Below are positions 53,706 to 55,140 of a stretch of 64,000 nt of DNA, in pieces. Within the stretch, counting starts at the first letter, position 1; each line of letters begins with the position of its first letter. Location: contig NW_020312012.1 in assembly GCF_003144115.1 (NCBI RefSeq), positions 295,442 to 359,441 on the forward strand, in the 5' to 3' direction. The notes below the pieces were generated by a model. That model was given only the letters and a program-made list of their open reading frames with translations, made no database searches and was not told the origin of the DNA. Both the position numbers and the translations under genes were made by a program. Source of the stretch: Tilletiopsis washingtonensis (lineage: Eukaryota; Basidiomycota; Exobasidiomycetes; Entylomatales).

Positions 53706-55140
53706 TTATGCGACCGAGTAGACGCGGCAGAGGCCGTCCGAGTAGCCGGCGAACAGCGTCGAGCCGTCGGCGGACCAGGCGAGCGACAGGCACTGCGGGT
53801 CGGCCGAGTTCTTGCCGACACCGGCGAACTCGGGCTTGAGCTCGTCGACGATCGACTTGCTCTCAAGGTCGAAGACTGGTGCAGCAAGGGTCAGCTGCAT
53901 GCCGGCGGGCAGCACACGCGTGGCAGACACTCACTCTTGATGCAGCTGGCGGTGGCAGCGCACAGCCAGTAGCGGTTGGGGCTGAACACGAGGGCGTTGA
54001 CGACGTCACCGGCCTCGAGCGAGTACAGGTGCTTGCCGTCGGACAGCTCCCAGAGCATGGTGATGCCGTCCTTGCCGCCCGAGGCGCAGAGCGAGCCGTC
54101 GGGCGAGACGGTGACGGTGTTGATGTAGCCGGTGTGGCCGTAGTGGTTGGTCTTCAGCTTGCACTTGGACAGCTCCCAGACCTGCGCGTACGTGTGTCAG
54201 CGTGTGCGCAACATCGGAGGCACCACAGCAGCGGCAGCAGCAGCGGGCACAGCGAGCAGAAGAGCGCTCAGTGATCTTGGTGGTTCAGAGTTATTCTCAT
54301 CGAGCACCGAGTGCTCTAAGTAGTAGCAAATATTGAAGTTCCTCTTCCTCGCGCGGCGGTGCTCTCCATGCTGCGCCCGTGCTTCCTCTGCCGGGTGCTC
54401 TCGCGCGCGACTCACCTTGACGACCTTGTCCCAGCCGGCCGAGACGATGACCTGGTTGCTCGGGTTGGGCGAGAAGCGCACGCACGAGACCCACTCGGTG
54501 TGGCCGTCCTCCTGGATGTTGAACTTGCACTCGCCGAGCGTGTTCCACAGCTTGATGGTGCGGTCGCGCGAGCCCGACACGATCTGGCGGTTGTCGGCCG
54601 AGAAGGACACGCTGAGCACGTCGCCGGTGTGGCCGACGAAGCGGCGCGCCGTGGTGCCGGTGTTGAGGTCCCAGAGACGCAGCGTCTTGTCCCACGACGC
54701 CGACAGCGCGAACTGGCCGTCGGACGAGATGACGATGTCGCTGACAAAGTGGTTGTGGCCGCGCAGCACGCGCTTCGGGTAGCCGTACGAGGCGTCGTCG
54801 CGGCTCAGCTGCCACACGATGATCGTCTTGTCTGCGGGCCAAGGTCAGCGGCCGTGTCGCAGCAGCAGTTGGCACCACAGCGTCCCTATGCCCAAAGCAG
54901 CAGCACTGCTGACACGCGACCACGTCATGTTCCCTTGACTTTTCCCCGAAATGTTCCCTCTAGCCTTCTCCCATCTGCGCTCATCTCCTCTGCCCTGCGC
55001 CCCGCTCGCTGCGCCGCCTGCTGCTCCTACTCACCACGCGAGGCGGTGAGGAGCATGTCCGGGTTCTCGCTCGACGTGGCGATGGCGGTGATCCATCCCT
55101 TGTGGCCGGCGAGCTCGCCGCGGTACTGAAGAGCAGACAT
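53706..55140 (-). CDS. ASC1: RACK1 / Asc1 / Cpc2 ribosome-associated WD40 scaffold, 4 exons, 312 aa
   Basis: RACK1 is a seven-bladed propeller bound to the 40S head that links translation to signalling. Exons are 55140-55035, 54831-54416, 54181-53935 and 53875-53706. The start is MSALQYRGELAGHKGWITAI. Blades read SRDKTIIVWQLSRDD, GHNHFVSDIVISSDGQFALS, SWDKTLRLWDLNTG, FVGHTGDVLSVSFS, GSRDRTIKLWNTLGECKFNI, HTEWVSCVRFSPN, AGWDKVVKVWELSKCKLKTN, GYINTVTVSPDGSLCASGGK, and CLSLAWSADGSTLFAGYSDG at the end. Length matches the family (about 313-319 aa). Introns are 203, 234 and 59 nt; the two long ones are exceptional for this window and the second carries a U24-like snoRNA (separate entry). The call is secure. 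Confidence 0.98.
54263..54357 (-). ncRNA. SNORD24-like (snR24): Intronic C/D-box snoRNA, U24/snR24-like
   Basis: It lies in RACK1 intron 2 on the coding strand. The 3' antisense element ACCACCAAGATCA (54284-54272) is followed directly by box D CTGA (54271-54268). The 5' element CAATATTTGCTACTACTTA lies at 54335-54317. Between them is a C'-like GATGAGA (54301-54295). Both antisense segments match U24 as I remember it from yeast and human. A GCGC/GCGC terminal stem can flank the boxes. Box C is degenerate (GCGAGGA, 54352-54346) but keeps the two GA steps of the kink-turn. Established: yeast snR24 sits in the ASC1 intron and guides 2'-O-methylation of 25S rRNA near C1437, C1449 and G1450. Exact ends are uncertain. 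Confidence 0.85.

What the first reader, a model, noticed from the sequence alone, without database searches (positions are those of the whole stretch)
54263..54357. U24-like C/D snoRNA hidden in the second RACK1 intron
The intron is four times the usual length and contains ACCACCAAGATCA directly before CTGA, plus AATATTTGCTACTACTTA upstream, the two antisense segments of U24. Budding yeast also carries snR24 in the intron of its RACK1 gene ASC1, so host gene and guest appear conserved from ascomycete to this probable basidiomycete. Box C is degenerate (GCGAGGA), which would make a family search easy to miss.
Basis: partly seen in the sequence, partly recalled or inferred. Interest (0 to 1): 0.78.

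Follow-up and report, generated by a model that had tools for sequence, protein, structure and literature searches.

The report
U24 snoRNA inside a RACK1 intron
An intron of this fungus's RACK1 gene very probably carries the U24 guide RNA, which marks two neighbouring sites of ribosomal RNA; baker's yeast keeps U24 in the same gene, so the RNA is a known kind, but the old partnership and a worn signal box are worth noting.

Summary
The finding holds. On the minus strand, intron 2 (54415-54182) of a RACK1 gene contains a box C/D snoRNA of the U24/SNORD24 family (about 54355-54264). The Rfam model aligns end to end at 29.5 bits, below its gathering score of 41, and is the only match returned at E<=10 from the 18.7-Mb genome. 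Both U24 guides are intact, with 12 and 15 contiguous pairs to eukaryotic LSU rRNA. By the fifth-base rule they address a C and the A 12 nt further on, the spacing published for yeast, plant, human and Neurospora. RACK1 intron 2 aligns with the codon boundary of the yeast ASC1 intron that holds snR24 (yeast exon length recalled). A second yeast-like pair recurs: U18 in EF-1beta. Weak points: no canonical box C, and the best candidates (5 of 7) are no better than background; the U18-like and snR52-like RNAs of this genome have perfect box C. Expression and this organism's own rRNA were not checked. New member of a known kind. The mild surprises are the conserved host-guest pairing, the double-guide form that Neurospora carries on two RNAs, and the worn box C.

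The parts
53706..55140 (-). RACK1 host gene: exons 55140-55035, 54831-54416, 54181-53935, 53875-53706 (312 aa)
   Evidence: Spliced translation; 53 PDB sequences at E<=1e-60, mostly named RACK1 or G-beta-like
54182..54415 (-). RACK1 intron 2, 234 nt, phase 0 after codon 174 (K of DKVVK)
   Evidence: GTGAGT...CAG with CTGAC 19 nt before the 3' end
54264..54355 (-). U24/SNORD24 box C/D snoRNA; ends approximate
   Evidence: RF00069 model positions 1-76 at 54354-54264, 29.5 bits; sole match returned from the genome at E<=10
54340..54346 (-). Box C candidate 1, AAGAGGA (5 of 7 to RUGAUGA)
   Evidence: Rfam alignment and 5-nt spacing to the guide; not above background
54346..54352 (-).
   Evidence: Directly beside a 3-bp terminal stem; not above background
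54320..54334 (-). D' guide AATATTTGCTACTAC
   Evidence: 15 contiguous pairs to LSU
54317..54320 (-). Box D' CTTA (degenerate)
   Evidence: Position gives the A at +12 by the fifth-base rule
54302..54316 (-). 6-bp hairpin between D' and C'
   Evidence: Folds alone as 6 bp with a 3-nt loop, -6.8 kcal/mol; not part of the minimum-energy fold of the whole element
54297..54303 (-). Box C' UCGAUGA (5 of 7; overlaps the hairpin by 2 nt)
54273..54284 (-). D guide ACCACCAAGATC
   Evidence: 12 contiguous pairs to LSU
54268..54271 (-). Box D CTGA
54351..54354 (-). 5' arm of the 4-bp terminal stem GCGC
   Evidence: Rfam alignment; pairs with 54267-54264, -8.0 kcal/mol
54264..54267 (-). 3' arm of the terminal stem GCGC
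54196..54200 (-). Probable branch site CTGAC, its A 71 nt beyond box D
   Evidence: CTGAC lies 17-19 nt before the 3' end in all three RACK1 introns; distance

Best explanation
RACK1 intron 2 carries a double-guide box C/D snoRNA orthologous to yeast snR24/U24. Inferred mechanism: after RACK1 splicing the lariat is debranched and trimmed back to the snoRNP formed on the C/D and C'/D' motifs. The RNP directs fibrillarin to 2'-O-methylate two LSU rRNA sites: the C of GAUC|UUGG through the D guide, and the A 12 nt further 3' through the D' guide (yeast C1437 and A1449). Shown here: position in the intron, box D, both guides, their pairing to eukaryotic LSU rRNA, and uniqueness in the genome. Inferred: expression, snoRNP assembly on a degenerate box C, methylation, and descent from a RACK1-hosted U24 in the ancestor of ascomycetes and basidiomycetes.
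For: End-to-end SNORD24 match, the only one returned from the genome at E<=10. Guides of 12 and 15 nt to eukaryotic LSU. Predicted sites 12 nt apart, as in the plant, human and yeast rows of a published table and in Neurospora. The D' 13-mer occurs once in the genome at up to 1 mismatch, reversed control 0; D guide plus box D occurs once exactly. Yeast RACK1/ASC1 hosts U24, and the intron boundary aligns with yeast K179. A second pair seen in Candida, U18 in EFB1, is also present here.
Against: 29.5 bits is below the gathering score of 41. The genome search at E<=0.001 found nothing, and at E<=10 it also rang in 11 of 14 prokaryote controls, 0 over the cut-off. No canonical box C, and the candidates are not above background, while 2 of 2 other C/D RNAs examined here have a perfect one. 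The whole element does not fold better than shuffles (z -1.09), and its minimum-energy fold lacks the D'-C' hairpin. A 12-nt match to rRNA beside CTGA is reached in 8 of 40 shuffled windows. Own rRNA not seen; no RNA data.
Confidence: 0.87

Rival explanations
1. A decaying U24 relic: the guides remain, but box C has been lost and no snoRNP forms.
For: Best box C candidates are 5 of 7 and not above background; other C/D RNAs here have perfect boxes; the D' box is CTTA.
Against: Both guides and box D are intact. No second copy of either was found: D' 13-mer once at up to 1 mismatch, D guide plus box D once exactly. The quoted SnoBIRD rule for low-confidence predictions needs a C score of 2 or more and a D score of 1 or more; read as mismatches, this element has 2 and 0.
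Confidence: 0.1
2. A real U24, but inserted into RACK1 independently of the yeast lineage, so the shared host is convergence.
For: Neurospora carries the two guides on two RNAs, one intergenic and one intronic, and the paper says the same split holds in S. pombe. A survey found no homologous snoRNAs in equivalent introns at the depth of the last eukaryotic ancestor.
Against: The intron lies at the aligned codon boundary and phase (yeast exon length recalled), and U18 in EF-1beta repeats the pattern.
Confidence: 0.1
3. Chance or non-snoRNA: an AT-rich piece of intron that resembles rRNA complement.
For: A 12-nt rRNA match beside a CTGA is reached in 8 of 40 shuffled windows; the model score is under its cut-off.
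Against: The two family-specific guide cores in order occur once in the genome, reversed control 0, inside the gene that hosts U24 in yeast.
Confidence: 0.02

Closest known systems
Saccharomyces cerevisiae snR24 (U24) in the ASC1 intron
   Same: Same host gene; both guides on one RNA; shared letters TTGCTACT and ACCAAGATC before CTGA, seen in the primer sequences of PMC4848094; intron boundary aligned (yeast exon length recalled)
   Different: Box C here is degenerate; yeast box C is canonical by recall. Yeast has a third site, 1450, not predicted here
Rfam SNORD24 (RF00069)
   Same: All 76 model positions aligned; both guides and box D
   Different: 29.5 bits against a gathering score of 41; box C and D' depart; 91 nt against 76
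Neurospora CD50 and CD51 (U24 and U24b)
   Same: Same two rRNA sites, 12 nt apart (PMC2780460, passages)
   Different: Two separate RNAs there, one intergenic and one intronic
Pleurotus ostreatus SNORD24.1
   Same: A SNORD24 match inside a gene intron of a basidiomycete (PMC5040776, passages)
   Different: Host gene g3964 not identified in the passages seen; sequence not seen

Membership tests
Box C/D snoRNA | Box D CUGA | tested here: met
   CTGA at 54271-54268
Box C/D snoRNA | Box C RUGAUGA | tested here: inconclusive
   Best 7-mers 5 of 7, not above background; the two named candidates keep the GA..G core positions
Box C/D snoRNA | Terminal stem | tested here: inconclusive
   4 bp set off by 4 nt from AAGAGGA, -8.0 kcal/mol, or 3 bp directly beside GCGAGGA, -3.2 kcal/mol
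Box C/D snoRNA | Guide of about 10 nt or more upstream of D or D' complementary to rRNA | tested here: met
   12 and 15 nt to eukaryotic LSU, not to this organism's own rRNA
U24/SNORD24 family | Covariance model at the gathering score | tested here: not met
   29.5 of 41 bits. A curation threshold, not a structural feature; a SNORD18 match in the EF-1beta gene scores 28.4 of 41
U24/SNORD24 family | D guide to the LSU C site (yeast C1437) | tested here: met
   Fifth base upstream of D pairs with C in 4 of 4 LSU contigs
U24/SNORD24 family | D' guide to the A site 12 nt further on (U24 of yeast and plants) | tested here: met
   Fifth base upstream of CTTA pairs with A in 4 of 4, spacing 12; rests on CTTA being D'
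U24/SNORD24 family | Stable mature RNA and 2'-O-methylation of the two sites | not testable with these tools
   No RNA data held

The most novel reading that the evidence does not exclude
The double-guide U24 in this exact RACK1 intron is the ancestral state of ascomycetes plus basidiomycetes and has stayed in place since they parted, together with U18 in EF-1beta; the two-RNA form of Neurospora and fission yeast is derived. In this lineage U24 stays functional although box C has lost both conserved U residues, which would mean that the K-turn core, the terminal stem and the C'/D' half suffice for snoRNP assembly.
Probability: 0.4. Interest if true: 0.5.

Novelty: new member of a known kind. 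Interest (0 to 1): 0.33.

Why it matters
U24 supports normal 60S production in yeast (PMC2749941, passages). One survey found that snoRNAs in introns conserved since the last eukaryotic ancestor are not orthologous (PMC3511168, passages), and a survey of intron-poor fungi singled out RPL7 and NOG2 as snoRNA-bearing introns of conserved position; the words RACK1 and ASC1 do not occur in its main text (PMC8476143, passages). RACK1-U24 and EF-1beta-U18 look like two further pairs kept between ascomycetes and this probable basidiomycete, and they would polarise the U24 split reported for Neurospora and fission yeast. The element is below the Rfam cut-off, so automated annotation at that cut-off would miss it.

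Tried and rejected
Relatives of the snoRNA: a 9+9-base pattern scan of viral contigs gave 87 stretches. Of these, 3 had a box-like motif nearby (L006, L046, L048). L006 and L046 carry the same stretch, with C-like and D-like motifs on both sides, and looked like a U24 at first sight; in L046 it lies inside a 193-aa open reading frame on the same strand, so I take it as coding sequence and chance. RACK1 in viral contigs: 4 pattern matches, none confirmed. No fungal genome collection is held, so box C could not be compared across relatives.

A search of papers for the rRNA target string gave nothing. 'The fungal snoRNAome' (Canzler et al. 2018), the likeliest place for earlier annotation of fungal U24, is not held; I saw it only in a reference list and as the source of alignments in another paper. 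I therefore do not claim that a RACK1-hosted U24 in basidiomycetes is unreported; the listings, and the passages I opened, showed none. I opened passages of 15 papers and read none whole.

Other families in this genome: of five snoRNA families tried (RF00069, RF00093, RF00309, RF00335, RF00213) three gave a match (RF00069 at E<=10, two at E<=1) and one passed its cut-off. Whole-element folding is not informative. Rejected: that the element is an antisense copy of an rDNA piece; the two guides are separated by a hairpin and other sequence and stand in snoRNA order. My first splice model set the intron 3 acceptor one base off; corrected.

Full report
WHAT IS THERE. The gene on the minus strand at 55140-53706 encodes a 312-aa RACK1 in four exons. 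Its best solved relative is 4d6v, G protein beta subunit Gib2, at 581 bits, ahead of 7olc and 7r81 at 556 and 554 bits. The window lies in an 18.7-Mb assembly of 32 contigs and is 68.7% GC. The introns are 203, 234 and 59 nt; all three start with GTGAGT, end with CAG and carry CTGAC 17-19 nt before the end.

THE ELEMENT. Intron 2 (54415-54182) holds an AT-richer core. Read 5' to 3' it has: overlapping box C candidates GCGAGGA (54352-54346) and AAGAGGA (54346-54340); the guide AATATTTGCTACTAC (54334-54320); box D' CTTA (54320-54317); a 6-bp hairpin (54316-54302); box C' UCGAUGA (54303-54297, overlapping the hairpin by 2 nt); the guide ACCACCAAGATC (54284-54273); one spacer base; and box D CTGA (54271-54268). 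The Rfam SNORD24 model aligns over all 76 positions at 29.5 bits, E 0.029 for 2.5 kb against 4227 families, below the gathering score of 41. The whole window has no match over any gathering score. In the whole genome a SNORD24 search at E<=0.001 finds nothing. At E<=10 it returns this place alone, E 0.052, with 59 of 583 first-look candidates scored. At that loose limit 11 of 14 prokaryote control genomes also ring (0 over the cut-off), so the rank says more than the E-value. Folded as a whole, the element is no more stable than shuffles (z -1.09), and the minimum-energy fold lacks the D'-C' hairpin; the hairpin stretch alone folds at -6.8 kcal/mol.

GUIDES AND TARGETS. The rRNA target was found in four public contigs, and Rfam classes the matching stretch of each as eukaryotic LSU rRNA. 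Against each, the D guide makes 12 and the D' guide 15 contiguous Watson-Crick pairs. The contigs were selected by an exact match to the target, so this shows what the site is, not how widely it is conserved. By the fifth-base rule the D guide addresses the C of GAUC|UUGG, and the D' guide, counted from CTTA, addresses the A 12 nt further 3' (4 of 4). Published pairs have the same spacing: plant Cm1439/Am1451, human Cm2338/Am2350, yeast Cm1435/Am1447 (PMC3511168, table passage), and Neurospora Cm1418/Am1430 (PMC2780460, table passage). Passages of PMC2749941 and PMC4848094 number the yeast sites C1437, C1449 and C1450; by the sequence of these LSU contigs the base 12 nt after the C is an A. 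The target was not found in this organism's assembly (that search skips very common words), and the LSU family search did not complete in seven attempts. Its own rRNA therefore remains unseen.

CHANCE. In the window the D' 14-mer is the only match at up to 3 mismatches, 0.05 expected. The D 13-mer has one exact match and one with 2 mismatches; 0.51 are expected at up to 2 mismatches. In 18.7 Mb the D' 13-mer occurs once at up to 1 mismatch, reversed control 0. D guide plus box D occurs once exactly and five times with one mismatch, reversed control 1. The two guide cores in order occur once, reversed control 0. A counter-test: scanning the window for any complement of 10 nt or more to the LSU and SSU sequences at hand next to a CTGA gives 4 places, with this one the longest at 12; the mean in 40 shuffled windows is 6.0 places, and 8 of 40 reach 12 or more. 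The D guide by itself would not convince; the combination does.

HOST AND ORIGIN. Yeast ASC1 (RACK1) contains snR24/U24 in its intron (passages of PMC4848094 and PMC2749941). Aligning window RACK1 with yeast Asc1 (166 of 309 aligned residues identical) puts the intron 2 boundary, after K174 in DKVVK, opposite K179 in DKMVK. From memory of the yeast database, ASC1 exon 1 is 537 nt and so ends after codon 179; position and phase would then agree. That yeast length was not checked here. A second pair behaves alike. A SNORD18 match (28.4 bits, cut-off 41, E 0.027 in the genome; 4 of 14 control genomes also ring at E<=1) lies in the first intron of a gene whose product has EF-1 guanine-exchange and EF-1beta acidic domains. 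Candida albicans hosts snR18 in its EFB1 intron (PMC2926782, passages). Exon 1 of the gene here is 80 nt, the length I recall for yeast EFB1.

The picture in other fungi is mixed. In Neurospora, and by that paper's account in fission yeast, the two U24 guides sit on two RNAs; Neurospora CD50 is intergenic and CD51 intronic. Fusarium U24 is listed as intronic, host not seen (PMC9606315, passages). Pleurotus has an intronic SNORD24 match (PMC5040776, passages). Flammulina RACK1 has introns of 50, 50, 177 and 48 bp (PMC7113406, passages), a pattern that fits a hidden guest, though its sequence was not seen. The simplest reading is that a double-guide U24 in RACK1 is old in the Dikarya and was split or moved in some ascomycetes. 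Independent insertion at the same boundary cannot be excluded without intermediate species.

THE WEAK POINT. Between the 5' splice site and the D' guide (54415-54336), 4 of 74 7-mers match RUGAUGA at 5 of 7 positions and none better; 1.3 are expected at the window's rate. Three of the 4 keep the GA..G core, 0.7 expected. Box C is thus not established by sequence. The U18-like and snR52-like RNAs of this genome have AUGAUGA and GUGAUGA (2 of 2 examined). AAGAGGA keeps a 5-nt distance to the guide, as in the Rfam alignment, but its 4-bp terminal stem is set off by 4 nt. GCGAGGA is stacked on a 3-bp stem but lies 11 nt from the guide. Both keep the positions that, by established knowledge of the C/D K-turn, form the sheared G.A pairs and the next pair with box D; both lack the flipped-out U bound by Snu13. 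SnoBIRD's filter for low-confidence predictions calls a pseudogene when the C box score is 2 or more and the D box score is 1 or more (PMC12309372, passage). Reading the score as mismatches, this element has 2 and 0. Function with a worn box C looks likelier than decay, because no second copy of the guides was found, but only RNA data can decide.

VERDICT. It is a new member of a known kind, with modest added interest from the conserved host-guest pairing, the double-guide form and the box C.

Noticed in passing
L094 1501-1575 (minus), G000:C11:156847-156921: A SNORD18 (U18) match, 28.4 bits, in the 454-nt first intron of an EF-1beta gene; box C AUGAUGA. Candida EFB1 hosts snR18 in its intron, so this looks like a second conserved host-guest pair.
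   Followed up: partly
L095 1501-1608 (minus), G000:C26:175087-175194: A snoZ13_snr52 snoRNA well over its cut-off (69.5 bits, cut-off 47) with box C GUGAUGA. Nearby minus-strand frames look to me like phosphoglycerate kinase (by eye; no family search run).
   Followed up: no
window 55034-54832: RACK1 intron 1 is 203 nt, nearly as long as intron 2. The Rfam scan gave no snoRNA there and the guide scan no rRNA complement of 10 nt or more before CTGA; why it is long is unexplained.
   Followed up: partly
L090-L093: Eukaryotic rRNA sits in contigs filed as a viral genome (L090) and as bacterial MAGs (L091 Gammaproteobacteria, L092 Bacteroidetes, L093 Clostridia): contamination or mis-binning.
   Followed up: no
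window 3224-5947, 35400-36566, 46131-47141, all minus: Neighbouring genes look ordinary: formin-like (Diaphanous FH3), coproporphyrinogen III oxidase, condensin subunit (Cnd3). Of eight frames scanned, four had no Pfam match at E<=0.001, and the 888-aa frame at 50547-53210 (+) had only a match below cut-off to NTR2.
   Followed up: no
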